IMG/VR virus record: IMGVR_UViG_3300009502_000024
Span: 32,642-96,641 of that record
Direction: 5' to 3' (one strand)
Source: a virus
Length of the DNA stretch: 64,000 bases
In this document: positions 98 through 17,000 of the stretch, one piece after another
How positions within the stretch are numbered: position 1 is the stretch's first letter
Layout: every line of letters begins with the position of its first letter
Program-made: the position numbers and the translations under genes
The notes under the pieces: model-generated
Told to the model about the DNA's origin: nothing
Databases searched by the model: none
What the model saw: only the letters and a program-made list of their open reading frames with translations

Positions 98-739
98 ATG
101 GGATATAACGATAATCAAACGGTGACAATAGATGCAATTCTAACTAAAAAAGGGAGAGAATTATTGGCAAAAAATGGAAACCTTAACATAACTAGTTTTG
201 CGTTGGCAGATGATGAAATTGATTACTCCCTTTATCAGCCAAATCATCCAAATGGGAGTGCATTTTATGATATTGCACTGAGAAATATTCCAATATTTGA
301 GCCGTTTACGGATGAAACACAAGTTATGAAATACAAATTAGTTACATTAAATCAAGGAGTGACGTCTATTCCTGTTATTACGATTGCCCAAGACAAAATT
401 AGTGTCAATCGAGATTTTACTGGTCAGATTCTTATTTCTCCTTCTACTAATCCCGCCTATAATTTAACCGCCGGATATACCGCTATTTTGGGAAATAAAA
501 ACGTAGGAATTATTGTAGTTCAAACAAATAATTCTCTTAATTCGGTCTCAAATACAGTGCCAACATTTGCAGGCGATATTAATACCGCAAGTTCTCAGGT
601 GGTTGTGGGAATGACATTTTTATTCGTTCCTAATTCTCAATTAGGAAGAACAACCACAACGGATTTAACGATTGTTGGAAATGAATCGGGGGGAAGCACA
701 AGCATCGAAGTAACTGTTATTGTTCCTACTACAAGTTAA
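98..739 (+). CDS. putative virion structural protein
   Basis: 213 residues with no membrane segment or signal peptide. The N-terminus (DNQTVTIDAILTKKGRELLA) and the bulk, which is rich in beta-branched, Asn, Thr and Gly residues, resemble small structural proteins of large myoviruses, though no family name can be given. It sits 9 nt before another structural gene and heads the virion block. No Shine-Dalgarno is seen; the start is an ATG in an AT-rich leader. The exact role (baseplate, tail or fibre) is unknown. Confidence 0.55.
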   Translation: MGYNDNQTVTIDAILTKKGRELLAKNGNLNITSFALADDEIDYSLYQPNHPNGSAFYDIALRNIPIFEPFTDETQVMKYKLVTLNQGVTSIPVITIAQDKISVNRDFTGQILISPSTNPAYNLTAGYTAILGNKNVGIIVVQTNNSLNSVSNTVPTFAGDINTASSQVVVGMTFLFVPNSQLGRTTTTDLTIVGNESGGSTSIEVTVIVPTTS

Positions 740-748: not shown

Positions 749-1888
749 ATGATATTCAACACTTTTCAAGATACGGATATTGTCACCGGACGAACAACTC
801 GGGTAGCCAGCGGATTTTGGCCAGGCGGCGTGACTAATTGGAGCCAAAGTTTATTTGTGGACGATTTATGGGACTTAACCGGATCAATTGCTACACCCTC
901 GCCTGCGTACGGGACGTCTCTTTATGATGTTCGGCGAACCATGTATTATGTGAATGTGTTTCCAAATGCGACATATCATGAACAACACGATCCTTATTTT
1001 TCTGCTACATATGGACATATTGCTGGGAGCGGTTCATTTAATATTGAAACTTCGAGTATTTTAGTAAATCCGACTAAAGCAATTTATACACAATATAAAA
1101 ATCTGCTTTTGGGAACCGGAGACGTAGATGGAAAATTTAGTTTTAAAATCGGAAGTGCGGGAGGAACTACTAATGCAAATGATATATTTGTTTTAACTTT
1201 TTCAACCTATAAAATGAAAGATCGGTTAGACGAAGGGATTTTTCAAATTTCATTTTCCGGCTCATATGGATGTAAAACTTATATAGATGATTCTATAACT
1301 GACACTCAAGTAAAAACGGTATATAATTTAATCTCAGGATCATTAGAATCAGGTGTTGCTCCAAATGCAACATATGATGGAGTTGGATTATTTTATCCGA
1401 ATAATGGTATGTTAGTTATTAATGCTCAAAAGTTAGATGATATAATTGGAATGCAGGCGTCAACTACTGTAAATTATAATTCCGATGGTGGTGGAAAATA
1501 TTATTATTCCAGTGCGTCTTTTTCAACCGATTATAGTCAAAATTCTAAAGTTATCGTGGAGGCGATTAAAGCGGCAGGATCGAATACCTCGATTCAAATG
1601 AAAATACGAAAATCCGAATATGTTCCGGCAAGACATTATTTTATTCGCATTAAAAATAGAGACTTTAATTATAGCAACAATCCGACATATGTTTACGATG
1701 GGACCGATGGAAACCATGCCAATGGAACTATTCGTAATAGCGATTTTGTAGACAATCCAAGAACTTATCTGACGACAATCGGATTATATAATAGTGATAA
1801 TGAATTAGTAGCTGTTGCAAAATTAAGTCGCCCCGCCGTAAAAACTTTCGATAATGAAATCTTGTGCAAAGTTCGAATTGATACGTGA
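749..1888 (+). CDS. virion structural protein with shared C-terminal IGLY...AVAKL motif
   Basis: 379 residues, rich in Gly, Ser, Asn and Tyr, as is usual for beta-rich tail or fibre proteins. Residues near the C-terminus read TTIGLYNSDNELVAVAKLS and then P-x-x-K-T. The same signature (TIGLFDGLDLVAVAKLGSP) ends the 786-residue protein at 8234-10594, so the two share a terminal domain although their N-terminal parts differ. The gene follows its neighbour by 9 nt. Probably a particle surface or tail component; the precise function is unknown. Confidence 0.6.
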   Translation: MIFNTFQDTDIVTGRTTRVASGFWPGGVTNWSQSLFVDDLWDLTGSIATPSPAYGTSLYDVRRTMYYVNVFPNATYHEQHDPYFSATYGHIAGSGSFNIETSSILVNPTKAIYTQYKNLLLGTGDVDGKFSFKIGSAGGTTNANDIFVLTFSTYKMKDRLDEGIFQISFSGSYGCKTYIDDSITDTQVKTVYNLISGSLESGVAPNATYDGVGLFYPNNGMLVINAQKLDDIIGMQASTTVNYNSDGGGKYYYSSASFSTDYSQNSKVIVEAIKAAGSNTSIQMKIRKSEYVPARHYFIRIKNRDFNYSNNPTYVYDGTDGNHANGTIRNSDFVDNPRTYLTTIGLYNSDNELVAVAKLSRPAVKTFDNEILCKVRIDT

Positions 1889-1972: not shown

Positions 1973-3292
1973 ATGTTAAAGCAAATTCAACGCAATAATT
2001 TTCTTACGGTGCCATTTGTTGCTTCTAAAAAATGGAATTTACGTAATATTGATAATGAGGCTTTAGCTGTTATTGATGATGAATACATTGCATTAGAATA
2101 TGTAGATTATTATGGCAATCCTCTTCTTAATCGTGATTGTAACATAACGCTTGAACAGCAACGTAATAATAATGTTATTTTTGAAATAGGTAGAAAATCT
2201 ACCGGAATTTTTTATCCAGATCAGGAAGAAAAAAATGATACTGGAACTTATATTCGACTGGTATATGATCAGACAAAATTAGCTTTTTATAATGAATATA
2301 AGAATCCTTTGAAAATTTTTGGGGTGGAGAATATTGATTTTGGTAATAGTAGAATGTTTCGATATATTGCAGATGAGTTTCGAATGTTTACTCTTCCAAA
2401 AGCATTTTTTGGAGATTCTATTAAAAAGAAAAGCGTATCCTTTATGGATAATGCATTGGATGATTATGTTCAAATAAATGATGATGGATATGGAAATTTG
2501 ATAGCTACAAAAAATCTTTTTTCTAAAATTCAAGAGGTTAGAAAGTTTTCAAATGCTTATAAAGAAGGAGATGCCGCAAATGAATGTCCCCCAGTTGTGA
2601 TTCCTACAACCACTACGACTACATCTACCACGTCTACTACATCTACGACTACTGCACCGACAACAACTACTACGACTACTACAACTACTGAAGCTCCTCC
2701 ACCAACAACTACTACAACAACCAGCACAACTAGCACTACCAGTACTACAAGCACAACATCAACAACCAGTACAACTACTGAAGCTCCTCCTCCACCAACA
2801 ACAACAACTACTACGACTACTACAACTACTGAAGCTCCTCCTCCTCCAACAACAACAACTACTACGACTACTACAACTACTGAAGCTCCTCCACCAACAA
2901 CTACTACTACGACTACTACAACTACCGAAGCTCCTCCACCAACAACTACCACTACCACTACGACAACTAGTACCACATCAACGACAACAGCGCCTCCTAC
3001 ATGTCCTGAATGTTCCACTTACTCCGCTACAACAGTATATTGTCCGAATACTGTTTTGTTATTCTCAACACAGGCTCAGTTCTGTCAAGATTTAAAAGAT
3101 GCTTGGGGATTCGGAAGCGGTCATTCTGTTTTTATTTGGAAACCAATATATGATGGTATTAATGGAGCAACGGTTATTTCTAATCTTGCTACATTATGTG
3201 GAATGACGTTTACCCAAACATCCACTACATTGGGGAATACAACTTGTGAAATAACTCCTCCCGAAACAGAGTTTCGGTTTACTGTGCCGTAA
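1973..3292 (+). CDS. virion protein with mucin-like Thr/Pro-rich domain
   Basis: 439 residues in three parts. Residues 1-205 look like a phage virion domain (FGVENIDFGNSRMFRYIADE, then DNALDDYVQINDDGYGN and NLFSKIQEVRKF). Residues about 211-343 are almost only Thr with Ser, Ala, Pro and Glu, in repeats of T6-10 blocks, STT triplets and EAPPP. This composition is that of a mucin-type O-glycosylation domain. Residues 344-439 form a Cys-containing C-terminal domain. The next gene, 9 nt downstream, is a tandem glycosyltransferase with polypeptide GalNAc-transferase-like motifs, followed by further sugar genes. Inference: a surface-exposed glycosylated stalk or fibre. Glycosylation itself is not shown by sequence. 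Confidence 0.7.
   Translation: MLKQIQRNNFLTVPFVASKKWNLRNIDNEALAVIDDEYIALEYVDYYGNPLLNRDCNITLEQQRNNNVIFEIGRKSTGIFYPDQEEKNDTGTYIRLVYDQTKLAFYNEYKNPLKIFGVENIDFGNSRMFRYIADEFRMFTLPKAFFGDSIKKKSVSFMDNALDDYVQINDDGYGNLIATKNLFSKIQEVRKFSNAYKEGDAANECPPVVIPTTTTTTSTTSTTSTTTAPTTTTTTTTTTEAPPPTTTTTTSTTSTTSTTSTTSTTSTTTEAPPPPTTTTTTTTTTTEAPPPPTTTTTTTTTTTEAPPPTTTTTTTTTTEAPPPTTTTTTTTTSTTSTTTAPPTCPECSTYSATTVYCPNTVLLFSTQAQFCQDLKDAWGFGSGHSVFIWKPIYDGINGATVISNLATLCGMTFTQTSTTLGNTTCEITPPETEFRFTVP
2606..2995 (+). repeat. degenerate ACN-rich tandem repeat encoding the Thr tract
   Basis: About 390 nt built almost entirely of ACN threonine codons with recurring GAAGCTCCTCC units (Glu-Ala-Pro-Pro) every 50-70 nt. Third positions vary widely (aca, act, acg, acc), so the protein composition is conserved rather than the DNA. 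Copy number may vary by slippage. Confidence 0.85.
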
Positions 3293-3301
3293 TAAAATAA
3301 T

Positions 3302-5545
3302 ATGTTATCTGTTATAATTCCCTGTTGGAGAGATAATTCCAATTTAATTAATACTTTACAATCGATGTATTCAACTTCCACATCGGAATTTGAATGTATT
3401 ATTGTGGACGATGCCTCTCCTATTCCTGTCATTATTCCAAATGAGTATAAAAATAAATTACGACTGATAAGAAATAATAAACAACTTGGTTGTGGTAGAT
3501 CCAGAACATTAGCCGCTAAATTAGCTACTCAGAAATATTTATTTACCATTGACAGTCATACAGACTTCGAACAGGGGTGGGATGATGTTATAAAAAAGAA
3601 CTTAAAATTTGTAGATAATAATACTATTATTTATTTTCCTCTTAAAATTAGTAATACTTGGGATCGTAATTTATACGATTTTTGCGATATACGTTATGGA
3701 AGTTTAGCTTATCTATATAATCCCCGAAATAAAAACTTTTTAGGCGTAGAACAAATAGTCAATACAAAAATTGAACCTAATTGTTTACATGCATCATATG
3801 TTATTAAACGAGATTATTTTTTATATTTAAAGGGTTTACTTGATGTAAAATATTGGGGTTCCGATGAATTAATATTAACTATTAAAATATTAATGACAGG
3901 AGGAAACATAAAACTAATTCAAGATGTTATATTAACACACGTTGATTTACGGAGTGGAATGCACATTAGAAACTTGTATTATATCTATTATAATATTCTA
4001 CGAATTGCAAAAACACTAATGAGCGTAGAAGAGTATAATGAGTTTTTGAGTTTCATAGATAAAACTCAAATACCCGTTCAATCATTTAAATTCTTAGATG
4101 ATGATGTAGAAGAAATAGAAGAATTTAAAAAGTATTATAAAGAGATTTTTATTCACGATTTTTCTTGGTTAAAAGAAAAATTAAATTTTGATTTATCCGA
4201 CAAAAATAATCCTTTACATTACAATGCATTATTAAATCGAGATACTATAAATAAACGATTAGAAAATCAAAAATTAATACACAAAGAATGGCCTGTAGTC
4301 AAAAATACATGGGAAAAGGCAGACGCATTTATAAACTCGGTAGCAAGCCGAGGAATTTTATCGACAACGATGAATTTAATTGGGATAGATAATAATTCCG
4401 GAGAAAAAGTATCGGAAGAAATTTATACTATAAGGCATAATTCTTGTTTTGGAATAACCGGTTCTAACCAATGTTCTCAACTTAAATATGCGGAGAACTT
4501 TGGTCATTATTGCGGAGCGTGTGGATGTGGGCAAACAAAATTAGCTAAATTGGATGGAGATGGATATAGATATACAAAACTTCATTATCCGTATCTTGAA
4601 TGTCCATTAAAAAAACATGGATTTTCTAATTATATTGAAAAAAAATCAATTCTTTCAATTATTATAACTTGTTGTAATGAAAAAAAAGAGTATCTTAATA
4701 GAACAATTGATTCTATAAGAAAAACCGCTGGGAATGAACCAGAAATAATTATCATTGACGATGCTTCTATTATTCCTATTGAAAGCAATGAAAGAGTAAT
4801 ACGAAACGATGTTAGAATTGGGGTAGGAAGATCGAGACATAAAGGGGCTATAGCGGCTTCCAATCAATATTTACTCATTACAGATGGTCATATGATTTTC
4901 GATAATGGGTGGTATGAAAATTTCATTGAACGGGCAAAGACAGCCAAACTAAATGACATGTTCTGTGGAACCTGTTTGGGATTAGACGAAAAAGACAAAG
5001 ATTTATCCGCCCATAAAGGAGCATACCACGGAGCAAGAATAGAGCTTTACAACGAAAAAGAAAATCAAATATTAGAAGGAAAATGGATACCCGAAAAAAG
5101 TGAAATGGAATATGAAATATCTTGCTTAATGGGAGCGTTATATTTTGTCAGGAAAGACTGGTTTTTAAAGATTCGTGGATTATCCGATATTAAAATGTGG
5201 GGATCGGATGAGCCGTTTCTAAGTCTGAAAACACTATTATGCGGCGGACATATTTTTTTGCTAAAAAATGTGAGAGCGGGACATGTTTTTAGAGATAGTG
5301 CGCCATACACTACAGGAGTAGAATATTTGGTCTATAATAAAATTAGAATGGCAAAAACATTATTACCGGATGAATTGGCTAATAAACTTATAGATAAATT
5401 ACCGAAGGATGGTAATTTTAATGCAGCAATGAAAATGTGCGAATTGGAGAAAACTGAAATTGAAGAATATAAAACATATTATAAATCTATTTTTATAAAA
5501 GATTTTTATGAATTTTGTAAAGAATACGATATAAAATTATTATGA
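3302..5545 (+). CDS. tandem GT-A glycosyltransferase, polypeptide GalNAc-transferase-like (GT2/GT27)
   Basis: 747 residues with two GT-A domains. Domain 1 (about 1-230) has LSVIIPCW, VDDASP, the metal-binding DSH at 84-86 and WGSDE at 185-189. Domain 2 (about 447-700) has LSIIITCC, IDDAS, DGH near 527 and WGSDE near 633, followed by a GGHIFLL and GHVFRDSAPYT segment. The order DSH/DGH, WG-x-(D/E)-(N/E) and GHVFR...PYT is that of eukaryotic-type polypeptide GalNAc-transferases (GT27), which put the first sugar on mucin Ser/Thr. A Cys-rich linker (about 378-440, with HYCGACGCGQ) separates the domains. It directly follows the mucin-like gene and overlaps the next gene by 4 nt. The donor sugar is not determinable. 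Confidence 0.75.
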   Translation: MLSVIIPCWRDNSNLINTLQSMYSTSTSEFECIIVDDASPIPVIIPNEYKNKLRLIRNNKQLGCGRSRTLAAKLATQKYLFTIDSHTDFEQGWDDVIKKNLKFVDNNTIIYFPLKISNTWDRNLYDFCDIRYGSLAYLYNPRNKNFLGVEQIVNTKIEPNCLHASYVIKRDYFLYLKGLLDVKYWGSDELILTIKILMTGGNIKLIQDVILTHVDLRSGMHIRNLYYIYYNILRIAKTLMSVEEYNEFLSFIDKTQIPVQSFKFLDDDVEEIEEFKKYYKEIFIHDFSWLKEKLNFDLSDKNNPLHYNALLNRDTINKRLENQKLIHKEWPVVKNTWEKADAFINSVASRGILSTTMNLIGIDNNSGEKVSEEIYTIRHNSCFGITGSNQCSQLKYAENFGHYCGACGCGQTKLAKLDGDGYRYTKLHYPYLECPLKKHGFSNYIEKKSILSIIITCCNEKKEYLNRTIDSIRKTAGNEPEIIIIDDASIIPIESNERVIRNDVRIGVGRSRHKGAIAASNQYLLITDGHMIFDNGWYENFIERAKTAKLNDMFCGTCLGLDEKDKDLSAHKGAYHGARIELYNEKENQILEGKWIPEKSEMEYEISCLMGALYFVRKDWFLKIRGLSDIKMWGSDEPFLSLKTLLCGGHIFLLKNVRAGHVFRDSAPYTTGVEYLVYNKIRMAKTLLPDELANKLIDKLPKDGNFNAAMKMCELEKTEIEEYKTYYKSIFIKDFYEFCKEYDIKLL

Positions 5546-6132
5546 ATGATATAGTAGAAAATATAATTAAAGAAAAACCAGAATCAATTCACAAATTAAT
5601 ACCATCTGAATTTTTTACGAAGTATGATTCGTATGACTATGTGTGGAGTGGAAATTGTTTTGAATGGTATTATGCCATTAGCAAAGTGATACAACCAAAA
5701 ACATTTATGGAAATCGGGGTCAGATTCGCATTTAGTTTTTTACCATCTATGATTGGCGGAGATAAACTTGAATATGCTCTTGGTTGGGATTTAGAAACGT
5801 ATGGAAACAATACAATAGCAATTGACAATCTTACAAAATATTATCACGGATCATCTAAATGGGAAATATTACATGTAGATTCACAACTACAATCGGAACT
5901 TCCTCAATTTTTTGATTTAGTAAGTATTGATGGTTGTCATGAATATGATGGAAAAATTCACGATTTAAAAATGGCAATGAATAATTCTAGATATGTTATA
6001 TTAGATGATTATGATTATCATTCCGATGTTCGTAGAGCAACAGACTTCTTCTTAAAAGAATATAGAGATAGAATTGAATGGAATGAATATATAAAAACAT
6101 TTAGAGGAAGTCAACTTATAAAATTTAAATGA
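5542..6132 (+). CDS. class I SAM-dependent methyltransferase (Methyltransf_24-like)
   Basis: 196 residues. FMEIGVRFAFS fits the SAM-binding glycine-poor motif I, SIDGCHEYDG matches the acidic-loop motif of the Methyltransf_24 group, and YVILDDYDYH fits motif IV. Members often methylate sugars or modify glycans. Start and stop overlap both neighbours by 4 nt, which places it in one translational unit with the glycosyltransferases. A role in capping or decorating the phage glycan is inferred from this position. Confidence 0.65.
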   Translation: MNDIVENIIKEKPESIHKLIPSEFFTKYDSYDYVWSGNCFEWYYAISKVIQPKTFMEIGVRFAFSFLPSMIGGDKLEYALGWDLETYGNNTIAIDNLTKYYHGSSKWEILHVDSQLQSELPQFFDLVSIDGCHEYDGKIHDLKMAMNNSRYVILDDYDYHSDVRRATDFFLKEYRDRIEWNEYIKTFRGSQLIKFK

Positions 6133-6797
6133 AATATTTAGACTTTTTTGAAGATGTATATTATATCAATTTAGATTATAGAATTGATAGGAAAATACTA
6201 TTTGAAAAAAGAGCATCTGATGTAGGAATTATTCCTAATAGATTTTCAGCAATACAACCAACTGAAATAGAATGTCAATCGATTACTCCTTTTAAAGAAA
6301 TAAGAAGATTTAAAGTTGGATGTACAATGTCTCATCAGGCAGTAGTTAAAATAGCTAAAGAAAAAAATTTTTCAAATGTTTTAATATTTGAAGATGATTG
6401 TCTATTTTTGGAAGGATTTCAATCAAAAGCTCAATTATGTGTTAATGAATTAAAAAATTTACATTGGGATATTATATATTTTGGTGGAGAACCTAATAAT
6501 CAATGTGTAGATATATCAGATAATTTGGTAAAAATAGAAAATGGCGGAGTTTATTGTTGTCATGCTTATGCTGTTAATAATACATTTTATGATAAAATAC
6601 TAAATGTAAATCCTCATCAGATAGATGTTATAGATATATTTATTTTAAACTATGAATGTTCACGAAGAATATATCTTTTAAGTAGAGATTTACTAGCTGT
6701 TCAAGATGGAATTTTTTCAGATTTAAAACAAGGATTAAATGAAGCTGCAGCTTCTTATATGAAAAAAGGGTGGGATAAATACGTTAATAAAAAATAA
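6129..6797 (+). CDS. glycosyltransferase family 25 (LPS-type) protein
   Basis: 222 residues. VYYINLDYRIDRK at the start, then GCTMSHQAVVKIAKE and VLIFEDDCLFL, are the order of signatures seen in GT25 glycosyltransferases (INL-x-x-R-x-R, GC-x-x-SH, EDD). The EDD triplet should bind the metal-nucleotide sugar. The gene is markedly AT-rich, more so than the virion genes, which suggests separate acquisition. It overlaps or abuts its neighbours by a few nucleotides. Confidence 0.7.
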   Translation: MKYLDFFEDVYYINLDYRIDRKILFEKRASDVGIIPNRFSAIQPTEIECQSITPFKEIRRFKVGCTMSHQAVVKIAKEKNFSNVLIFEDDCLFLEGFQSKAQLCVNELKNLHWDIIYFGGEPNNQCVDISDNLVKIENGGVYCCHAYAVNNTFYDKILNVNPHQIDVIDIFILNYECSRRIYLLSRDLLAVQDGIFSDLKQGLNEAAASYMKKGWDKYVNKK

Positions 6798-7450
6798 TGG
6801 AAAAAATTATACATCAAATTTGGGTTGGTAAATATAAAATGCCAAAAAGAGAAAAATCATTTGTTGAATTAATGAAACAAAAAAATTCCACATGGGAACA
6901 TATGTTGTGGACAGATTTAGAAGTATTACAATTAAATATGCCCCCAAATATAAAAAATGCTTATAATTATTTCTTAAAAGACGATGATTATGTTGCTCAA
7001 GCAGATATTTTAAGATTATTTTTAGTTTATGAATTTGGAGGTATATATCTAGATGTAGATTTTGAAACCAGAAAGGGATTTGATGAATTAAATCTTTTAT
7101 CATATGATGGATTCATATGTTATCATGATACAGATATTAGAGTTGATACCATTCCTAATGGTATATTTGGTAGTAAAAAAGGTAATAAATTATTTGAATT
7201 TTTAAATAAAAATATATCATCTAATTATCATACTCCTTATGTTGTAGGAAAATTTATTAAACAATATTACAATTTAAATCTAGAAAAAACAGAACATCTT
7301 GGTGAAAATGGATTGTTAAATTATTTTAAAAGAGATAATATATTTTATATGCCATTTAATGACTTTCATAACAATTATTATTTTCATCATGCGTTATATT
7401 CTCATTCACCAGAAATGAAACGAAAATTTAAAGAAGGAAAAATAGAATGA
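6797..7450 (+). CDS. glycosyltransferase family 32-like (DXD sugar transferase)
   Basis: 217 residues. It begins KIIHQIWVG, continues with QADILRLFLVYEFGGIYLD and VDFET. IPKIIHQIW...A-x-x-(S/A)D-x-x-R...GG-x-Y-x-D-x-D is the GT32/Gly_transf_sug signature, and the DVD supplies the metal-binding DXD. Length is normal for a phage or capsule-type family member. It is part of the 4-nt-overlap glycan operon and very AT-rich like the gene before it. Confidence 0.75.
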   Translation: MEKIIHQIWVGKYKMPKREKSFVELMKQKNSTWEHMLWTDLEVLQLNMPPNIKNAYNYFLKDDDYVAQADILRLFLVYEFGGIYLDVDFETRKGFDELNLLSYDGFICYHDTDIRVDTIPNGIFGSKKGNKLFEFLNKNISSNYHTPYVVGKFIKQYYNLNLEKTEHLGENGLLNYFKRDNIFYMPFNDFHNNYYFHHALYSHSPEMKRKFKEGKIE

Positions 7451-8178
7451 CAAATCCAAAAATTACATGCCTCACGTCTACTTATGGTAGATTATCAAAA
7501 TTAAATGAAGCAGTTTCCTGCTTTTTAGATCAAGATTATGAAAATAAAAAATTAATAATTCTCAACAATCATCCAACACCTTTAATTTGTGATTTACCAC
7601 AAATTATTGTATATAATGAACCAATATATCCTACTCTAGGAGATTGTAGAAATAGATTAATAGAATTAGCAGACGGTGATTTTATCAGGACGTGGGATGA
7701 CGATGATCTTTATATGCCTTGGACACTTTCTCAAGGAATAAAATATATAAAAGATAGTCCTGCATGGAAACCAAAAAAATCTTGGTTTTGGTTAAAAGAA
7801 AAAAATCCTGAATTGGCTGAAAACGTATTTGAAGCTGCAATATTAATTAGAATTGACATTGCTAAAAAATATGGATATTTAAAATCTTCTGGAGGAAATG
7901 AACATGAAACTTTATGTAAAGGCATAGAAAAGGAGGGCGGTTGTAGTAACGACGACCTTGGTGATTTAGCATCTTATGTATATCGGTGGGGATGGGGAAG
8001 TTGGCATATTTCAGGAAGTTTAGGTAGCAATACCATTGAAAATAGAACAAAAACGTGGTGTGAACATAATAATGATGTACAAAACGGAATTATAAGAAAA
8101 GTAGATTTATCCGAATATTGGAGTCATTTCCCAACGTGGAATCCAAATTTACGAGCTTTCAACAAACAACTAGTTTAA
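7447..8178 (+). CDS. glycosyltransferase family 2
   Basis: 243 residues. ITCLTSTYGR at the N-terminus, LGDCRNRLIELADGDFI and TWDDDDLYMPW form the GT2 nucleotide-binding and DXD region. It is the last gene of the glycan cluster and ends 55 nt before the next virion gene, so the cluster is bracketed by virion genes on both sides. Acceptor and donor cannot be told from sequence. Confidence 0.7.
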   Translation: MTNPKITCLTSTYGRLSKLNEAVSCFLDQDYENKKLIILNNHPTPLICDLPQIIVYNEPIYPTLGDCRNRLIELADGDFIRTWDDDDLYMPWTLSQGIKYIKDSPAWKPKKSWFWLKEKNPELAENVFEAAILIRIDIAKKYGYLKSSGGNEHETLCKGIEKEGGCSNDDLGDLASYVYRWGWGSWHISGSLGSNTIENRTKTWCEHNNDVQNGIIRKVDLSEYWSHFPTWNPNLRAFNKQLV

Positions 8179-8233: not shown

Positions 8234-10594
8234 ATGTATATTGAAGTCCACAATGCAAATTACGGATATGCCACTGCCACGTATGGGGATTACGTTGCCA
8301 TCGGTAATCCAGTTTTCCTACGATATACCGGGAGCACTCCTGATGTATACTATACCGGATCGGTAGATGTTTTCCGATATAATAAAACAACCGATCAACA
8401 CGATTTAATTAACACTCTTTTTGTTCACGGGGCGGGATTAGAAACCCTATTAGCCACCGAACTAATTGATCCGTTATTACATACAGAATATGGATCTTAC
8501 TGGTCGGCAGACTTGGACATCTGGATCGACAGAGAGAAATATTATTCTTCTATAGAAGATGGGACAGGTGTTTCTCTGGATATGTATGCCAAAACACTGG
8601 TAGCGGGAGTTCCATATTATAGAGTAAGATTTAAGACCGATTATGTTGAATTATTTGCTTCGGGATCCGCCGTCGATATTTATGATTTCACACGAAAAGA
8701 GACAATTCCCGGCACAGACCCTTATGTTGGTTCTTTGATGAATCCACATAGTTATATAACTGAATCATTTGGAATAGGAGTGGGAATAAATAGCGAATGG
8801 ATAGCAGTAGGATCTCCACTAGTAAGTTCTTCCTGCGGAATGGTATATGTTTATCAAAATATCTCAACTGGAAGTAATAATTTTAGTTGGTCTCTTTTTC
8901 AAACAATAACTTCTCCAAATCCCATGCCAGAGCAGCAGTTTGGACGAAGTGTAAAATTAAATAAACAAAGTGGATATTACAGTTCTAGTATGGTGGTTGG
9001 ATGTGGACTATCTTCTTCAAATGAAGCTTATTATTTTGAGTTTATTAGCGGAAGTTGGATTTCCAGTTATACTTTTAAACCAACCACCGATATTTACCCT
9101 TTAACATTCGGCAATTATCCTCCGTATGCTCCGACGATGAGTCTAAATAGTGGGTTTGGATACGATGTCTCTTTATTTAATAATTCGGTTATTATTGGGG
9201 CGTATGCAGATAGATTGGTATACGAGTATACCGGCTCCTCTCAATTTCAACAGGGTGCCGTGTATATATTTGAAAAATGTCATGACGTGCCGTTATCCAA
9301 GTTTCGATTGGCGTTAAAAACATATGGAACCCCCCTCACATTAAGAAACAATAGAATGGGATTTTCGGTTGATATGTTTGATAAATATGCCGTTGCCGGT
9401 ATACCCAAAATAGATTCATTAGATATGACGCCTTGTTTCGTTCAAGGTACATTAGGGCAACTTCACTATTGCGATCAAGCATTGGAAGACATGTTGCAAG
9501 GTCAAGCTATGTTACTTGAAAAGAACACTTCTTCTTTAGATTGGGAAATTATAAATGTTTATCAAAAGAAAAAACGCTTTTTAAGTCCGCATCGACACTT
9601 CGGATGGGATGTTTCCGTTGACGGAAGGTCTATGGTCGTGGGTGCCCCCATGTATTATAGCGGTTCCAGATTTATTAATATTGAGACAACTGCCAGCAGT
9701 GGAGTTACCATTGATGATATCGCAGGTAAAGCATATATTTATAATTTTCCTAATCTCCGACCCGAATTTCATGTTGGAAACGTATTTTACCGAAATGGAA
9801 AAATTGTTATAATGACGTCCGGATCGGCATTCAATGGACTGTTTTTAAATCCCGTAAGCAATATAAATTATGAATATGATTTAACTTACAACAGTCAAAG
9901 AACAATTCATGAACAACAGATTTTATGTAATGTGGAACCGGGAGAATTTAATGTTAGTACAAATCCATCCGCAATAATGTTACCTTCTTCGACATTAGAT
10001 CTAAATAAAAATGGGAAATTTGATTTTCAAGATGTAGACGTTCTTTTAAGATATTTACAATATAAACAAGATTCAACCACCGACTGGAGTTCTTCTATCT
10101 TGTCCGCCGATGATGAAATAAGTTTTTATAACTATAACGCATCACAGTGGAATAACACCGATTCAGTATGGAGTTCGAGTTTTTATAGATTTGAAAACGT
10201 CGATACCACTTTTATAGATTCTTTGGATATCAATTTCGATAATAAAATTAATGGCTCAGATATGATCGTATTGTGGAAATATTTTTCAAATAGATTGGAA
10301 GAAAAGAATTACAATACCTGTGTTAATATTAACTGTAAAAGAAAATTGGTAAGTGAAGCGATTAGTTATCTAAATTCAATTTCAAAAAGACATTATCTTC
10401 CACAAATTTCTCCGGAGTTTTTTAACTATGATACTTTAAGCGCAGGGGATAAAACCGGATCATTTCTTGCACCGATGGTATCTACAATTGGGCTATTTGA
10501 CGGGCTAGATCTAGTTGCAGTGGCCAAATTAGGATCGCCGGTCAAACTCCCTAAAACATTATCAACAAATTTTTGCATCAAAATGGATTATTGA
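8234..10594 (+). CDS. large virion protein with FG-GAP-like propeller and dockerin-like Ca-binding pair
   Basis: 786 residues. At least four repeats of the FG-GAP type occur (for example FGIGVGINSEWIAVGSP, FGYDVSLFNNSVIIGA, FGWDVSVDGRSMVVGAP, each followed by a G-x-(V/A)-Y-(I/V)-(Y/F) strand), so a beta-propeller is likely. Near residues 590-690 come two EF-hand-like units, LDLNKNGKFDFQDVDVLLRY and LDINFDNKINGSDMIVLWKY, with the D-x-N-x-(D/N)-G-x-(I/F) pattern and spacing of a type I dockerin pair. The C-terminus carries the TIGLF...VAVAKL signature shared with the protein at 749-1888. Probably a receptor-binding or fibre protein; the partner is unknown. Confidence 0.65.
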   Translation: MYIEVHNANYGYATATYGDYVAIGNPVFLRYTGSTPDVYYTGSVDVFRYNKTTDQHDLINTLFVHGAGLETLLATELIDPLLHTEYGSYWSADLDIWIDREKYYSSIEDGTGVSLDMYAKTLVAGVPYYRVRFKTDYVELFASGSAVDIYDFTRKETIPGTDPYVGSLMNPHSYITESFGIGVGINSEWIAVGSPLVSSSCGMVYVYQNISTGSNNFSWSLFQTITSPNPMPEQQFGRSVKLNKQSGYYSSSMVVGCGLSSSNEAYYFEFISGSWISSYTFKPTTDIYPLTFGNYPPYAPTMSLNSGFGYDVSLFNNSVIIGAYADRLVYEYTGSSQFQQGAVYIFEKCHDVPLSKFRLALKTYGTPLTLRNNRMGFSVDMFDKYAVAGIPKIDSLDMTPCFVQGTLGQLHYCDQALEDMLQGQAMLLEKNTSSLDWEIINVYQKKKRFLSPHRHFGWDVSVDGRSMVVGAPMYYSGSRFINIETTASSGVTIDDIAGKAYIYNFPNLRPEFHVGNVFYRNGKIVIMTSGSAFNGLFLNPVSNINYEYDLTYNSQRTIHEQQILCNVEPGEFNVSTNPSAIMLPSSTLDLNKNGKFDFQDVDVLLRYLQYKQDSTTDWSSSILSADDEISFYNYNASQWNNTDSVWSSSFYRFENVDTTFIDSLDINFDNKINGSDMIVLWKYFSNRLEEKNYNTCVNINCKRKLVSEAISYLNSISKRHYLPQISPEFFNYDTLSAGDKTGSFLAPMVSTIGLFDGLDLVAVAKLGSPVKLPKTLSTNFCIKMDY

Positions 10595-11683: not shown

Positions 11684-12905
11684 AAACTCCCCTACCCTAA
11701 AGGGATAGGGGCTTCTATGCTGTTCACAGCAAGAGATTGTCTTCCCAATCTCAAAATGTTTCTTGCCGCATTTATGTCTCTATCCATAGATAGACCACAC
11801 GAACAATTGAAAACTCGATCTTTCAACTCCATTATCGTTCTCGTTCCACATTGGCTGCAAGTTTGACTAGTATAGGCAGGGTTGATTTTTATCAATATCT
11901 TATCAGCATATGCTGCTTTATAAGATATTATGTTTCCAAACATACTCCACGCTACATCATTTATCTGTTTACTACACCATCTTTTCTTTAACAATTTATT
12001 TGTTTCAATATCTTCTATAAATATAAAATCATATCTGTTTAATATACCATTTGTTGTTTTGTGAAGAAAATCATTTCTCTTATTTACAATTCTCTCATGA
12101 ATTCTTCTAGCAACTTTCCATTTTTTCTGTCTCTGTTTTTTTGCTAATTGCTTTTGCTCTTTCTCAAAAAATCGTGGATTGTTTATTTTAGTTCCATCAT
12201 CAAAAGTGGCAAAAGATAGAATCCCAACATCTATTCCAGTTTCTTTACCTGTTCTTCTAAATTGTTTTTTATTATTTGGAATATCGCAACAAGATATAGA
12301 AACGAACCATTTATTTGTTGGGGTTTTGGCTATGGTTATAGTTTTTGGAGTTCCAAATAATTTTCTATGTAATACAATATCAACTTCTCCTACTTTTGAT
12401 AATAATAATTTATTTTCTTTTATTTCGCACCCATTATTATATTGCGGGTAACAAATAGAAAAATATCTACCTTTTCCACGAAATCTAGGATATCCCGGAG
12501 TATCTCCATTTTTCAATCTTCTAAAAAATCCTTGGTATGCTAAATCAACTCTTATTGCTACATTTTGTAAACATTGAGAATATACAGAAGTTAGTTGGGG
12601 ATATGTTTCTTTTAAAATTGGTATTTGTTTGATTGAATCATAACAAGACACAGACTTCTTTTCTTTTTCCCAACTATTCTTTCTAATTTCAAGTAAATGA
12701 TTATAGAGAAACCTACAAGTTTCCAACTGGTTATTCAGGATTGTCTCCTGTTTCTTTGTTGGATATATTCTGTATTTATATGTAAGTTTCATTTTCTACA
12801 TATATGTATATCAAAGAATGTGAAAACGTTGATTTATTTTGAATTATTTTTCTCTTGGTCGAATTCATCCCCAAGGCTAAAGCCGTTGGGGTTTTCTTCT
12901 CCCAA
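11684..12905 (-). mobile_element. IS200/IS605-type element carrying only tnpB
   Basis: The element is bounded by two imperfect hairpins of the same design. The right-end hairpin at 11689-11711 pairs CCCCTACCC with GGGATAGGGG around a TAAA loop. The left-end hairpin at 12869-12891 pairs CCCCAAGGC with GCCGTTGGGG around a TAAA loop. Each has one bulged base. No tnpA lies inside, so mobilisation would need a transposase in trans. It sits between two genes and breaks neither. Outer borders are estimates. Confidence 0.7.
11692..12792 (-). CDS. tnpB: TnpB RNA-guided nuclease (IS200/IS605 family)
   Basis: 366 residues, near the usual TnpB size. Residues 1-40 show the typical start (YKYRIYPTKKQETILNNQL). 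RuvC motifs are intact: GIDVG with the first Asp, FIEDIE with the Glu, and MDRDINAARN with the last Asp. The zinc-finger pairs CSQCG and CSCG are present. TnpB proteins cut DNA guided by an RNA from the element's right end. The stop codon lies inside the right-end hairpin, as in other elements where the guide RNA overlaps the 3' end. All key residues are present, so activity is plausible. Confidence 0.85.
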   Translation of the reverse strand: MKLTYKYRIYPTKKQETILNNQLETCRFLYNHLLEIRKNSWEKEKKSVSCYDSIKQIPILKETYPQLTSVYSQCLQNVAIRVDLAYQGFFRRLKNGDTPGYPRFRGKGRYFSICYPQYNNGCEIKENKLLLSKVGEVDIVLHRKLFGTPKTITIAKTPTNKWFVSISCCDIPNNKKQFRRTGKETGIDVGILSFATFDDGTKINNPRFFEKEQKQLAKKQRQKKWKVARRIHERIVNKRNDFLHKTTNGILNRYDFIFIEDIETNKLLKKRWCSKQINDVAWSMFGNIISYKAAYADKILIKINPAYTSQTCSQCGTRTIMELKDRVFNCSCGLSMDRDINAARNILRLGRQSLAVNSIEAPIPLG

Positions 12906-12952
12906 GATTATAAAAAGTTGTGTTTTCTTGAGTTTCTGATAGTGTTTACCTC

Positions 12953-13918
12953 ATGATTTTACAGTCGAATCTCCTTTCTCTTCTTAATGAATTGATTGGT
13001 CAGAATGCCAAACTTCGAAAAGGAGGCACTCAGGCAGTTTATTTTTGTAAATGTGGGCATTACAAGCGAAAACTTGAAGTTTTATTAGACCCGCCGTTTT
13101 ATTTTAATTGTTGGGTGTGTCATTTTTCCGGAAATATTTACACGCTGTTCAGAGAATACAATGCCCAACCATCTCATTATAATCGGCTACAAGATATCGT
13201 CGGAGATTCGGGCGGTTTCCATTTAAAAGGAGACGAAAATAAAAAAACAGACTTGTCTTTACCCGAGGATTTTATATCTTTGGCCACTCCCCCAAAGCCC
13301 GATGCGCTTTATTCAGAACACATGCAGGAGTATCGTAGAGCAATGGCATATTTGAAAGGCCGTGACATAACGATAGAGGATATTTGTCGGTATAATATGG
13401 GTTACTGTGAAGCCGGAATTTATAGGGATTGTATTATTGTCCCATCTTACGACGATGAAGGAAAACTTAACTATTTCTCGTCTCGTTATTATTATCCGCA
13501 TCCGTGGCTGAAATACAAGAATGCCCCGTTTTCAAAGAACATTGTCGGGTTCGAATGCTTCATCAATTATGATGCCGACATTGGAGTTACAATAACGGAA
13601 GGAGTATTTGACGCAATATCCGTTCGAAACAATGCCATCCCAATGTTTGGAACATTCCCATCAAGAAAACTATTGGATTGTCTTGGATTACATAGAGTTA
13701 AACGTGTTAATATATGTCTAGATTCAGATGCTATTAAAGAAGCATTAAAAATATATGAAAAACTTGTTCTAGACGGGACTGCATCCGAAAATATTCACCT
13801 TCTGGTTCTACCTGAAAAAGATCCATCCGAAATGGGATTTGATTGGATTCATCGTATTATAACTCAATCCAAACCAATTTCTATGAAAGAGGTTGTGGAA
13901 TTAAAATCAAAATATTGA
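12953..13918 (+). CDS. DNA primase (zinc finger plus TOPRIM)
   Basis: 321 residues. An N-terminal zinc-binding module (YFCKCGHY near 30, FNCWVCHFSGN near 57) precedes a TOPRIM domain: ITEGVFDAIS with the catalytic Glu near 222, and ICLDSDAIKEALK carrying the DxD motif. It makes RNA primers for lagging-strand synthesis, or acts with a helicase elsewhere in the genome. Length fits a compact phage DnaG-type primase without a helicase-binding domain. The start ATG follows the tnpB left end by about 45 nt. Confidence 0.75.
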   Translation: MILQSNLLSLLNELIGQNAKLRKGGTQAVYFCKCGHYKRKLEVLLDPPFYFNCWVCHFSGNIYTLFREYNAQPSHYNRLQDIVGDSGGFHLKGDENKKTDLSLPEDFISLATPPKPDALYSEHMQEYRRAMAYLKGRDITIEDICRYNMGYCEAGIYRDCIIVPSYDDEGKLNYFSSRYYYPHPWLKYKNAPFSKNIVGFECFINYDADIGVTITEGVFDAISVRNNAIPMFGTFPSRKLLDCLGLHRVKRVNICLDSDAIKEALKIYEKLVLDGTASENIHLLVLPEKDPSEMGFDWIHRIITQSKPISMKEVVELKSKY

Positions 13919-14078
13919 TGTAAACGGAAATCTAAGACCCAAAGATGCATTAAGAGAAAAAGAAATAAGAGATCATTTGAAATGTACATTTGTAAGAATA
14001 AAAGAAACCAATTTCAATGAAGAAGACGCAATAAAAATTATTTATGAAAGTATTACAAGTTCGGAATCAAAACTTTAA
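13905..14078 (+). pseudogene. C-terminal remnant of an endonuclease-like gene
   Basis: A frame open from 13905 to the TAA at 14076-14078 has no start codon of its own and overlaps both neighbours. Its translation (PKDALREKEIRDHLKCTFVR and on) resembles the C-terminal R-x-K-E-I-x-x-x-L-x-C-x-F-(V/I)-R segment of Bro/MSV199- and Vsr-type virus endonucleases. Probably what is left of a lost homing gene. It could also be chance reading. Confidence 0.35.
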
Positions 14079-17000
14079 AAGAATAATCCATCTGGCAGAT
14101 GTTCATATTCGTCTTTTAAAACGACATATAGAATATAAAGAAGTATTCGATAAATTTTTTGAAGAGATATCCATATTATCGAAAGAAGAAACTTGTATCT
14201 GTATTCTCGGAGATGTTTTTCATTCAAAAACCGATCTTCAACCGGAATCTATAGAACTATGTAATTATTTTCTGTCGGGGTGTGCTAATAGGTTTCCAAC
14301 TATTTTAATAGCGGGAAATCACGACGCTATTTTATCTAATAAAACAAGATTGGATTCGTTATCTCCAATCGTCAAGGCGTTAAATAATCCTAATTTGTAT
14401 TATCTTAACAAAACCGATTTATATGGATTTGGAAATATCCTATTTAACAACATGTGTATTTTCGATGATCCAGAGAAATACATGAAGGGATATGATATTC
14501 CAGAGGTATATCGAAATCAATATTCTCATATTATAGCACTTTTCCATGGAGCAGTGGATGGGTCAGTTACAGATACCGGATTTCGAATGAATAATCCCGC
14601 TATCATGCCCCCGTTATTTGATTGGCATCATATCGCATTATTAGGAGATATACACAAAAGACAGAATATACAGGAAGCAATACCAGAAGAACATAAACCG
14701 TGCATTCATTTTTGCGGCTCATTATTGCAACAAAATCATGGAGAATCTTTACACGGTCATGGATATACATTATGGGATTTAAAAGATTATTCTTATAAAC
14801 ACGTTGAAGTTCTCAATGATTATGGACATTTTACATTAGAATTAAATGGCGGGCAAATATTAACTAATTTAGACGATTTGCCGAAAAAAACATATCTTCG
14901 AATAAAATGTTTAGATACTATACCTTCAGAGGTCAAAGCTACCGAAGCAAAACTTTCATTGCTTACAGAAATAGTTGAAACTGCCAGAATTCGTATTGAG
15001 TCTGAAACAGATAAACAGGCAAAAAAAGAACGAGTTTGTAAAGATGTGAAATTGGCAGAAATTGCAGATGTCGATTATCAAAATAAACTTATTACTGAAT
15101 TTCTAGAAGTTAAAGAGAATCTTCGAGACAAATCTAAGGTTGATAAAATTCTTCTTATTAATAGAGAAGTTAATACCGAAATTAAAAAAGATGAGTTTGC
15201 TCGTAATATTAAATGGATTCCTATTAAATTCGAATGGTCGAATATGTTTGTTTATGGAGAAAATAACGTTATAGATTTCACTCAAATGCGTGGAACCTAT
15301 GGCGTATTTGGACCAAATACATGTGGCAAATCCAGTATATTTTCCGCATTGTGTTTCTGTATGTTTGATAAATGGGATAGAGGATATAAATCTATCGTGG
15401 CTCGTAATGTTTCTACACAGGGATTTCACTGTAAGTTTGAATTTGAAATTAGTGGTATACGTTACTTTATAGAAAAAACCGGAGAAACCACTAAGGGTGG
15501 GAACGTTCGTGTCGAAGTTAATTTTTGGAGAATAGTGGACAGGGTTGTGCAAGATCTGACAGATGTGATGCGCCGTAAAACCAATGATGTTATTCGTGAT
15601 TATGTTGGAACATTTGAGGATTTTATTGTTACCACGTTGTCAGTTCAAACTGTAACTAAAAACACGATTTCATTTATTGATTTAGGAAATACTGAACGAA
15701 AAGATCTTTTAGTTCAGTTTATGGGGCTTAATGTTTTTGATAAATTGTATGATGCGGCTTATGCTAAAGGAAAAGAGTTAACTATTGAACTTAAACCACA
15801 TAAAGATAAAAATTATATAAAGGACTTGGATGATACCGAGGCAACATTAAAATACACGCAGTTAGCGATTGGGGAATGTCAACATGTTGCGGAGGACGTA
15901 TCTCGACAGGTCAAAGAAGTCAATGATAATATTGTGATTGAAACCACAAAATTAATAAAATTGGATAACGAAGTGCCTACTGATATTCTTTTTCTGGAAA
16001 AGAAACGTTTATCTTCCATCGCAGAGACGGAAAAACTAATAAAACAGATTGGCATTGATAAACCGAAATTAGAAATTTATCGCAAAAAAATGCTGGAGTT
16101 GAACGAACAACTTTCAGAAATCATTGCGGCAGATTTGGTTAAAGAACATAAAAAATATAATGAAATTTGTAAGCAATTGAATGATGAAACTCGTAAATAT
16201 GAACTTAAAAAAGTTGAGATTAAAAATAAACTAGATAAATTAAAAAAACTGGAGGAATATAAATACGATCCGAACTGTGTTTTTTGTGTCGAAAATGTGT
16301 TCGTAAAAGATGCCCGACAAACGAAATCCGTTCTAAAAACGGATCAGGAAGAGATGAACATAGCATTTGCCTCTATCACAAAACTCAAAGAACAACAGAA
16401 GGAATGTGATTGGGTAGATGCCGCATATCAGCATTATACTAAATTATTAAATGATCATAGTAAAGCTAAAGATGATTTTACTACATTAAATACCAAAATC
16501 CTTTTAACCGAGAAAGATGTCGAAAAGGGAACCCAATCACTGTTAGAAACCGAACGTAAAATCGAACTTTATCATCGAAATCAAATTGCATTGGAAAATA
16601 ACCAAAAGATCAACCTAATCATTTTAACATATAAAAATACTCTAAATAAACTTGAATCTACATTTAATTCTAATAATAAAAAACTACTTGAATTGGTAGG
16701 GAAAGAACAAGTTCTAAAGGGAACGGTTCAAACTGTAACGGAAACCATTCAAAAAATGATTGATACTGAGGAAAAAAGGGAATTATATGAGTATTATTGT
16801 AGGGCGGTCGGACGCAATGGCATTCCTTACGTGGTTATTTGTAATACTATACCAGAGATTACTCGGGAAATTAATGCTATTTTAACACAAACTACTGATT
16901 TTACGGTGGATATAGAATACGATGAGAAAAATATTACCCCTTATGTTAATTATGAAACAAAAGGACGCTGGGTAGTTGAGTCTTTAAGTGGGTTTGAACG

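What the first reader, a model, noticed from the sequence alone, without database searches (positions are those of the whole stretch)
1973..8178. A mucin-like virion protein with its own GalNAc-transferase-like glycosylation cluster
Directly seen: a virion protein with about 130 residues of Thr/Ser/Pro repeats is followed after 9 nt by a tandem GT-A enzyme carrying DSH, WGSDE and GHVFRDSAPYT, then a methyltransferase and GT25, GT32 and GT2 enzymes. The genes overlap by 1-4 nt, and the cluster is flanked by virion genes. Known: polypeptide GalNAc-transferases (GT27) put the first sugar on mucin Ser/Thr and have the same motif order. Inference: the phage makes an O-glycosylated, mucin-like particle surface, which would be new for a phage of this kind. 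It could mask epitopes, bind mucus, or shield from proteases.
Basis: partly seen in the sequence, partly recalled or inferred. Interest (0 to 1): 0.87.

Follow-up and report, generated by a model that had tools for sequence, protein, structure and literature searches.

The report
Phage mucin-like tail protein glycosylation cassette
A very large bacterial virus carries, among its tail-building genes, a protein with a long mucin-like threonine stretch followed at once by a set of sugar-attaching enzymes, the first resembling the animal enzymes that start mucin sugars; some related and unrelated viruses pair such stretches with different sugar enzymes, so the virus probably sugar-coats this protein.

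Summary
A 439-aa protein with a 132-residue Thr/Pro/Ser repeat (89 Thr) is followed after 9 nt by a tandem GT-A enzyme, a methyltransferase-like gene and GT25, GT32 and GT2 genes overlapping by 1-4 nt, inside a baseplate/tail block of a jumbo phage (368,758-bp contig). Among solved structures a profile of the GT domains finds 16 pp-GalNAc-T (GT27) sequences first (E 2e-22 to 7e-13). Domain 2 keeps DGH, the metal His and GHVFR..PYT; there is no ricin-lectin domain, so it is GT27-like, not a proven GT27. Strongest evidence: in 34 of 34 judgeable relatives whose orthologous protein lacks a repeat, the next tail gene follows within 49 bp, whereas 4 of 5 repeat-bearing orthologues have an inserted gene cassette (the fifth contig ends too early), with differing enzymes (GT27-like; PF11397; GT6). 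More widely, poly-Thr phage contigs have GT2 genes within 2 kb more often than collagen-repeat controls (7/60 vs 0/78), though most have none. Best reading: phage-encoded O-glycosylation of a mucin-like tail/baseplate protein. Glycan, first sugar and virion location are untested. Virion glycosylation by phage enzymes is known from mycobacteriophages; this is a new variant.

The parts
98..739 (+). ORF 'o98' (213 aa), conserved tail/baseplate-block protein upstream of the cassette
749..1888 (+). ORF 'o749' (379 aa), conserved neighbour; C-terminal motif T.IGLYNSDNELVAVAKLSRP resembles that of 8234-10594 (IGLFDGLDLVAVAKLGSP)
   Evidence: translations; synteny; alignment
1973..3292 (+). Thr-rich protein (439 aa): N-terminal domain aa 1-205 ('ThrN' family), mucin-like repeat aa 212-343, C-terminal domain; proposed glycan acceptor
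   Evidence: ThrN recognised in 47 of 85 loci
2606..3001 (+). Mucin-like repeat, (T,S)n with (T10-11)EAPPP blocks: 89 Thr, 11 Ser, 20 Pro in 132 residues
3302..5545 (+). Tandem GT-A enzyme (747 aa), GT27-like; proposed initiating O-glycosyltransferase
   Evidence: PF00535 5.5e-30; PDB best hit GalNAc-T2 2e-14; profile
3302..4189 (+). GT domain 1 (aa 1-296): DSH, WGSDE, a His at the metal-His position; no VFR..PYT
4190..4636 (+). Cys-containing middle region (aa 297-445), unassigned
   Evidence: Pfam best DUF7804 E 0.13
4640..5527 (+). GT domain 2: DGH, WGSDE, GHVFRDSAPYT; closest to GT27
   Evidence: Foldseek with a low-confidence model
5542..6132 (+). Methyltransferase-like protein (196 aa), possibly sugar methylation
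   Evidence: Methyltransf_24 E 0.013, weak; clear Methyltransf_24 matches in other Thr-linked cassettes, L368 (3e-16) and L332 (8e-7)
6129..6797 (+). GT25-type glycosyltransferase (222 aa)
   Evidence: PF01755 1.8e-12
6797..7450 (+). GT32-type (DXD, Gly_transf_sug) glycosyltransferase (217 aa)
   Evidence: PF04488 5.3e-11; the CAZy number is recalled
7447..8178 (+). GT2-type glycosyltransferase (243 aa)
   Evidence: PF00535 4.8e-8
8234..10594 (+). ORF 'o8234' (786 aa; FG-GAP repeats, dockerin-like), the gene that directly follows the Thr-rich protein's orthologue when there is no cassette
   Evidence: synteny

Best explanation
A phage-encoded O-glycosylation module acting in the infected cell. 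The Thr/Ser/Pro repeat of a tail/baseplate-block protein is the acceptor. The tandem GT27-like enzyme encoded 9 nt downstream puts the first sugar on Thr/Ser before assembly; the overlapping GT25, GT32 and GT2 genes extend the glycan and the methyltransferase-like protein may cap it. The result would be a stiff, glycan-covered stalk on the tail or baseplate. Shown here: gene order, repeat, GT families, GT27-first similarity with the metal-site motifs, and the repeat/cassette link across orthologous loci. Inferred: that the repeat is the acceptor, virion location, cytoplasmic timing, order of enzymes, and biological use (most likely protection and reach of the tail protein). GalNAc as first sugar is a guess, about 35%.
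For: Orthologous-locus test: the order o98-o749-ThrN-o8234 recurs across the family. Of 35 loci with a recognised ThrN and a separate o8234 ORF, the 34 without a repeat (at most 18 T/S/P in any 30 residues) have a gap of at most 49 bp, and the only one with a repeat (L368, 27 of 30) has a 3.9-kb cassette: PF11397 7.9e-57, GT4-like 4e-5 (below cut-off), Methyltransf_24 3e-16, one unassigned gene. L345 (syntenic): repeat, then a phrog_4417 gene of unknown function, GT6 (5.6e-11) and a weakly GT25-like gene. L202: repeat, then a homologue of L345's first cassette gene, then contig end. With the window, 4 of 4 judgeable repeat-bearing loci against 0 of 34 (Fisher 1.4e-5); counting L361 as lacking a cassette, 4 of 5 (6e-5). 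The repeat-bearing loci in the tree lie in separate clades. GT27-first. Wider sample: PF00535 within 2 kb of a poly-Thr tract in 7/60 records vs 0/78 collagen controls (p 0.0024); 5 within 500 bp vs 0.84 expected (p 0.001). GT27-like profile in 5/41 poly-Thr records vs 0/50 controls (p 0.016). PF11397 in 2/41 vs 0/50, not significant (p 0.20), but both downstream of the Thr ORF on its strand. An unrelated phage has a GT27-like domain (GalNAc-T2 first, 1.2e-5) in an ORF ending about 1 kb before a (TTTTTEAPPP)n ORF.
Against: No glycan or virion data. Three of the four repeat-plus-cassette loci were reached through the repeat or the cassette; the unascertained comparison alone is thin (L368 1/1 vs 0/34, p 0.029; with L361 counted against, 1/2, p 0.056). 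L361's repeat gene is followed by another T/S/P-rich ORF, not a GT, before its contig ends. 50 of the 85 loci could not be judged. Most poly-Thr records show no GT2 gene (41 of 60); of 45 T6EAPP records 5 have one, and these include the window's own contig and two records whose pattern is not in an ORF, though many records are short fragments. Collagen controls also have GT2 within 5 kb more often than random placement (4 vs 1.3, p 0.025), so tail blocks may attract GTs in general. Closest GT homologues (L030, L031) have no TSP-rich ORF in the stretch held. Poor structure model (pLDDT 57.9; TM about 0.4). Weak methyltransferase call. phrog_4417 has no known function.
Confidence: 0.72

Rival explanations
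1. The Thr/Pro repeat is an unmodified flexible linker, and the GT cassette is unrelated cargo that inserts into a hypervariable stretch of the tail block.
For: Poly-Thr stretches are common in phage ORFs and most sampled records show no GT2 gene. An endonuclease-like gene also inserts in this block (L359, my reading). Collagen-repeat controls show a mild GT proximity too. L361's next ORF is not a GT.
Against: No cassette in 34 of 34 repeat-less orthologues, but in 4 of 4 judgeable repeat-bearing ones. Separate clades with different enzymes at the same place. GT27-like and PF11397 enzymes, relatives of protein-glycosylating families, are present.
Confidence: 0.14
2. The GTs modify the host surface (LPS, capsule or S-layer) for superinfection exclusion, or act on another phage tail protein such as o8234.
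For: GT25, GT32 and GT2 families are also used in surface polysaccharide synthesis (recalled; Pfam names PF01755 'LPS biosynthesis protein'); the phage has further GT and nucleotide-sugar genes elsewhere.
Against: The genes overlap each other and follow the Thr gene by 9 nt inside the tail block; the first enzyme is closest to protein-glycosylating GT27; repeat-less relatives with o8234 lack the cassette.
Confidence: 0.1
3. The GTs glycosylate hypermodified phage DNA.
For: Known for phage GTs in general (as cited in PMC12619734, passages).
Against: Position in the tail block, GT27-like first enzyme and link to the repeat. No specific search for DNA-modification genes was made.
Confidence: 0.03

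Closest known systems
Mycobacteriophage virion glycosylation (Che8 gp110, Corndog gp38, Myrna; Freeman et al. 2023, seen only as cited in PMC12363180 and PMC12619734)
   Same: Phage-encoded glycosyltransferases decorate virion proteins
   Different: There the targets are capsid and tail-tube subunits (glycans at C-termini, per PMC12619734); here a Thr-rich repeat protein in the baseplate/tail block with a GT27-like enzyme and a multi-gene cassette. GT homology to those enzymes was not tested.
Mucin-type O-glycosylation by pp-GalNAc-Ts (CAZy GT27)
   Same: Best PDB similarity over the catalytic domain; DXH plus third metal His; VFR..PYT stretch; Thr/Ser/Pro-rich neighbour protein
   Different: Two catalytic domains in one protein, no ricin-B lectin domain found, phage-encoded and without an obvious secretion signal; activity untested
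Trypanosoma cruzi OGNT and Skp1 GlcNAc-transferase (CAZy GT60; the link to Pfam PF11397 is recalled)
   Same: GT60 OGNT1 makes GlcNAc-alpha-O-Thr on mucin-like proteins (PMC9472816, passages); a PF11397 protein directly follows the TSP repeat in L368 and lies downstream of poly-Thr ORFs in L163 and L100
   Different: Found in relatives and other phages, not in the window; the L368 protein also belongs to phrog_24687, annotated 'glycosyltransferase', so the family is already known in phages; activity unknown
Serine-rich-repeat adhesins with linked glycosyltransferases (streptococci; PMC7948813, abstract and start of the introduction)
   Same: Intracellular O-glycosylation of a repeat protein by dedicated GTs
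   Different: Bacterial cell-surface adhesins exported by accessory Sec; initiation by GtfA/B (recalled)

Membership tests
GT27 (pp-GalNAc-T) | DXH metal motif | tested here: met
   DSH in domain 1, DGH in domain 2; the latter aligned to the DSH of GalNAc-T2. Motif definition from PMC11074326 (passages).
GT27 (pp-GalNAc-T) | Third metal His and following VFR/PYT stretch | tested here: met
   Domain 2 GHVFRDSAPYT aligned to GHVFRKQHPYT; domain 1 has the His only.
GT27 (pp-GalNAc-T) | Closer in sequence to GT27 than to other GT-A enzymes of known structure | tested here: met
   Profile: 16 GT27 sequences 2e-22 to 7e-13, next 3e-6 over positions 3-103 only. Domain 1 alone is less clear.
GT27 (pp-GalNAc-T) | C-terminal ricin-B lectin domain | tested here: not met
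   No such Pfam hit in the 747 aa at E 0.1; middle region unassigned.
GT27 (pp-GalNAc-T) | UDP-GalNAc to Thr/Ser activity | not testable with these tools
   Needs an enzyme assay.
GT27 (pp-GalNAc-T) | GT-A fold with GT27 as nearest fold | tested here: inconclusive
   All 50 listed Foldseek rows are pp-GalNAc-Ts, but model pLDDT is 57.9 and TM about 0.4.
Phage virion glycosylation systems | Phage-encoded GTs linked to a structural-block protein gene | tested here: met
Phage virion glycosylation systems | Glycan detected on virion protein | not testable with these tools
   Metagenomic phage; needs mass spectrometry.
Mucin-like domain | Long Thr/Ser/Pro-rich tandem stretch | tested here: met
   132 residues, 100 T+S and 20 P.

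The most novel reading that the evidence does not exclude
Tailed phages possess a modular mucin system: a Thr/Ser/Pro repeat is built into a tail-block protein together with an interchangeable cassette whose initiating enzyme differs by lineage (GT27-like, PF11397/GT60-like, GT6-containing sets), gained as a pair at the same place several times. The phage carries its own counterpart of eukaryotic mucin-type O-glycosylation.
Probability: 0.44. Interest if true: 0.88.

Novelty: new variant of a known kind. Interest (0 to 1): 0.77.

Why it matters
If true, phages make mucin-like surfaces with their own enzymes, linked gene to gene, which would explain some of the long threonine runs in phage tail proteins and give a rule for predicting which of them are glycoproteins. 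It would supply enzymes that may O-glycosylate Thr-rich sequences in a bacterial cytosol, and candidates for how the mucin-initiating families of eukaryotes relate to prokaryotic and viral enzymes. It also changes how phage tails and their receptor contacts should be read in structures and in host-range work.

Tried and rejected
Looked for relatives of the GT and the Thr N-domain in the INPHARED phages: no match. A close-relative scan with the Thr N-domain in IMG/VR found only the same phage; the family became visible through the neighbour gene o98. AlphaFold of the Thr protein from one sequence: pLDDT 37, not used. AlphaFold of GT domain 2 with a 4-row alignment: low confidence, used only as a hint. 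Three other repeat-adjacent GTs were searched against PDB: two are not GT27-like (L344, L338) and L368's PF11397 protein has no meaningful match, so the general rule is 'a GT', not 'a GT27'. The MT gene of the window and that of L368 barely align by BLASTP (E 0.06); the GT25-like genes of window and L345 match weakly (1e-4); window domain 1 and L368's PF11397 protein share a short weak match (1e-4); so cassette content is mostly different. Paper searches with no paper holding all terms; one search returned one unrelated review; some searches returned only related or background papers; two searches were for an entry code and for GT60. The library holds only openly licensed PMC papers, so this does not show absence from print.

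Rows dropped before counting: of the 117 T12 loci 92 passed the coding test (63 of 80; 29 of 37) and the 60 with contigs of at least 15 kb were searched. The 50 Thr records are 41 T12 records plus 9 T6EAPP records, among them L071 and L093, already known to hold GTs; with them the GT27-like profile gives 7/50 vs 0/50 (p 0.012), without the 9 it gives 5/41 (p 0.016). Two of those 5 (G049, G082) are short matches to the PF11397 proteins and one (G073) lies more than 50 kb from its tract. L141 and L208 look like related phages (my reading); without L208 the results are 6/59 vs 0/78, p 0.0055, and 4 vs 0.81 expected within 500 bp, p 0.007. The ThrN table holds near-identical rows (39 distinct starts among 47). 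The ThrN HMM was built with the window and L345 in it, so its matches to them (and to L077, L110) say nothing; those to L202, L347, L348 and L349 are independent, and the L349 and L348 ones are ambiguous because these ORFs also match o749.

Full report
What is there. The window lies inside a 368,758-bp contig (IMGVR_UViG_3300025162_000016, handle G001) that contains it without a difference, starting at base 39621. The six ORFs of the finding are as described. The Thr-rich ORF encodes 439 aa; residues 212-343 are the repeat, with 89 Thr, 20 Pro, 11 Ser, 7 Ala and 5 Glu, largely (T10-11)EAPPP blocks and (TTS)n. Its Thr codons are mixed and not clustered, which suggests that the amino acid rather than a DNA tract is kept. 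No other ORF of the contig comes near it in T/S density (51 of 60 residues against 30 of 60 for the next of 245 ORFs of 150 aa or more). Nine bases on starts a 747-aa protein with two related GT-A domains (31% identity); then come a methyltransferase-like gene and GT25, GT32 and GT2 genes with overlaps of 4, 4, 1 and 4 nt. The methyltransferase assignment is weak in the window itself (Methyltransf_24 E 0.013).

Where it sits. Upstream are a gp25-type baseplate wedge gene (PF04965) and large structural-looking ORFs, then o98 and o749; downstream is o8234 (FG-GAP repeats). In Flavobacterium phage immuto the corresponding stretch is annotated: baseplate assembly protein, baseplate wedge protein, three hypotheticals, a putative nucleic acid binding protein, the o98 homologue, two hypotheticals (the o749 homologue and a gene that resembles ThrN but also o749), tail fiber, tail spike. 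The Thr-rich gene is thus in the baseplate/tail-fiber block; presence of its product in the particle is inferred.

The first enzyme. Among PDB sequences the whole protein matches pp-GalNAc-T2 best (2e-14) and the first 16 rows are all GT27 enzymes (8uhv is T. gondii GalNAc-T3). A profile of domain 2, domain 1 and two homologues finds 16 GT27 sequences at 2e-22 to 7e-13, 15 of them across most of the domain, and only then bacterial GT2 enzymes (3e-6 and worse) over roughly the first third. Domain 2 keeps DGH, WGSDE and GHVFRDSAPYT at the places of DSH, WGGEN and GHVFRKQHPYT. In GT27 the Asp and His of DXH and a later His bind the manganese (PMC11074326, passages). Domain 1 keeps DSH, WGSDE and the His but not VFR..PYT, and is less clearly GT27-like (2.9e-8, with a bacterial GT2 ranked fourth). 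No ricin-lectin domain was found; the middle 150 residues hold clustered cysteines and match nothing convincing. A structure model from four rows is weak (pLDDT 57.9); Foldseek lists only pp-GalNAc-Ts in its 50 printed rows, with TM about 0.4. I call the enzyme GT27-like: it likely works like one, but one defining feature (the lectin domain) is absent and activity is untested.

Test of linkage in orthologous loci. The order o98, o749, ThrN, o8234 recurs. Of 85 loci examined (80 plus L345 and L347-L350), 47 have a ThrN ORF recognised by single-sequence search and 35 of these a separate o8234 ORF after it; the other 50 could not be judged (no recognised ThrN, one ORF matching both, or contig end). 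In 34 of the 35 ThrN has no repeat (at most 18 T/S/P in 30 residues) and o8234 starts within 49 bp. The one with a repeat (L368, 27 of 30, TPTPTP type) has 3.9 kb in between: a PF11397 glycosyltransferase (7.9e-57; also phrog_24687), a GT4-like gene (4e-5, below cut-off), a Methyltransf_24 gene (3e-16) and an unassigned gene. That PF11397 corresponds to CAZy GT60, the family of the T. cruzi and Dictyostelium protein GlcNAc-transferases, is recalled. L345, reached through the poly-Thr scan, has o98, o749 and a Thr-repeat protein (36% identity to the window's, a figure raised by the shared Thr runs; assigned by place and alignment, not by the single-sequence search), then a gene of phrog_4417 (function unknown), a GT6 gene (5.6e-11) and a weakly GT25-like gene. 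L202, also from the poly-Thr scan, has a Thr-repeat ThrN (4e-12) followed directly by a homologue of L345's first cassette gene, then the contig ends. L361 has a T/S/P repeat and is followed by a second T/S/P-rich ORF before its contig ends; L362's contig ends inside its S/P repeat. So 4 of 4 judgeable repeat-bearing loci have a cassette and 0 of 34 repeat-less ones do (Fisher 1.4e-5); with L361 counted as lacking one, 4 of 5 (6e-5); with only the loci not chosen for either trait, 1/1 (0.029) or 1/2 (0.056) against 0/34. On a tree of o98+o749, in which several nodes have low support and L202 is not included, the window, L345, and L368 with L361 fall in three clades, each with repeat-less relatives as nearest neighbours. 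Cassette contents are mostly different.

Test across unrelated phages. PF00535 occurs in 19 of 60 Thr records and 8 of 78 controls (p 0.002); within 2 kb of the tract in 7 of 60 against 0 of 78 (p 0.0024); within 500 bp in 5 against 0.84 expected by random placement (p 0.001). Without one of two phages that look related the results hold (6/59, p 0.0055; 4 against 0.81, p 0.007). At 5 kb the Thr set has 11 of 60 and the control 4 of 78 (p 0.025), but the control also exceeds random placement (4 against 1.3), so part of the signal is that tail blocks attract GTs. In the T6EAPP set only 5 of 45 records have PF00535; one is the window's own contig and two (L065, L076) do not have the pattern in an ORF, so 2 of the other 38 coding records do. 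The GT27-like profile finds 5 of 41 poly-Thr records (7 of 50 with nine added T6EAPP records, two of them known beforehand) and 0 of 50 controls (p 0.016); two of the five are short matches to PF11397 proteins and one is far from the tract. PF11397 is found in 2 of 41 (none of the nine added) and 0 of 50 (p 0.20), both times downstream of the Thr ORF on the same strand, at about 0.7 and 1.5 kb. In record G044 an 822-aa ORF with a GT27-like domain (GalNAc-T2 first, 1.2e-5) ends 990 nt before a (TTTTTEAPPP)n ORF on the same strand; the DNA is rich in overlapping ORFs, so the gene calls there are less certain. Other neighbours of Thr genes are GT2 enzymes of other kinds, one fused to a Methyltransf_24 domain (L332).

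Mechanism. None of the six proteins shows a long hydrophobic start (longest run 5 residues in the first 35; no signal-peptide program was run), and phage tails are built in the cytosol, so transfer would be from nucleotide sugars in the infected cell (established knowledge plus inference). The contig carries a nucleotide-sugar cluster (heptose-7-phosphate kinase-like, RmlC-like, NDP-sugar dehydrogenase, aminotransferase, transketolase halves) and a GDP-mannose 4,6-dehydratase-like gene elsewhere, plus more GTs, so sugar supply need not come from the host alone. Of its two epimerase-family genes one is the dehydratase-like gene and the other was not classified further, so whether it can make UDP-GalNAc is open, and so is the first sugar. 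T. cruzi OGNT1 (GT60) makes GlcNAc-alpha-Thr on mucin-like proteins (PMC9472816, passages), so the L368 cassette may start with GlcNAc where the window's starts with GalNAc or GlcNAc.

Against. There is no glycan evidence; three of four repeat-plus-cassette loci were found through one of the two traits; L361 is an open or contrary case; most poly-Thr records show no GT2 gene; and the two nearest GT homologues (L030, L031) have no T/S/P-rich ORF in the stretch held.

Compared with what is known. Phage-encoded glycosylation of capsid and tail-tube proteins is reported for mycobacteriophages (cited in PMC12363180 and PMC12619734, passages; the original paper is not held). Serine-rich-repeat adhesins show the same logic of a repeat protein glycosylated inside the cell by dedicated GTs in bacteria (PMC7948813, abstract). 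What is new here, as far as the searches named could show, is the mucin-like acceptor candidate in the baseplate/tail block, the GT27-like and PF11397 enzymes beside it, and the repeated pairing of repeat and cassette at one locus.

Noticed in passing
G001 (L013, L014, L016): 191,800-214,148 and 244,346-245,404, outside the window: Nucleotide-sugar and GT clusters: heptose-7-P kinase-like, adenylyl/cytidylyltransferase, RmlC-like, transketolase halves, NDP-sugar dehydrogenase, RfbH/PseC-like aminotransferase, GMD-like, three further GT2 domains.
   Followed up: partly
G001 234,737-236,466: A second GT25-like plus GT32-like gene pair, in the same order as the window's 6129-7450 pair (5.9e-8 and 4.3e-18).
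   Followed up: no
L334 4785-5867, L163 7176-8153, L100 1844-2914: Radical-SAM-like proteins (C...CWYCPV motif, my reading) recur beside poly-Thr ORFs and GT genes in three phages; role unknown.
   Followed up: no
window 39557-40045, 41143-41562, 41559-42146, 42153-42662, 44789-45178: Five small ORFs share a motif close to FVSNSSSxSFI near their start (internal in the last as called) and then diverge; reason unknown.
   Followed up: no
window 20946-30103, 31780-32883: Terminase-, portal- and protease-like ORFs look interrupted by intein-like and homing-endonuclease-like stretches (my reading of the translations).
   Followed up: no
window 11692-12792 (-), 36507-38326 (+), 42758-43894 (-): TnpB/OrfB-like transposon proteins, one with a resolvase-like neighbour (my reading).
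   Followed up: no
L041 1558-3447 (Clostridium caldaquaticum): Two adjacent bacterial GTs related to the window's domain 2 (27% identity for the second), with DAH and HLFRK..PYK motifs; a possible bacterial branch of the GT27-like enzymes.
   Followed up: partly
L344 (G023) 12480-18767: Unrelated phage with two Thr-rich genes bracketing two GTs, two methyltransferases, one further small ORF and two endonuclease-like ORFs.
   Followed up: partly
L361 13552-14450: A second, separate Thr/Ser/Pro-rich ORF directly after the repeat-bearing ThrN orthologue, at the contig end.
   Followed up: no
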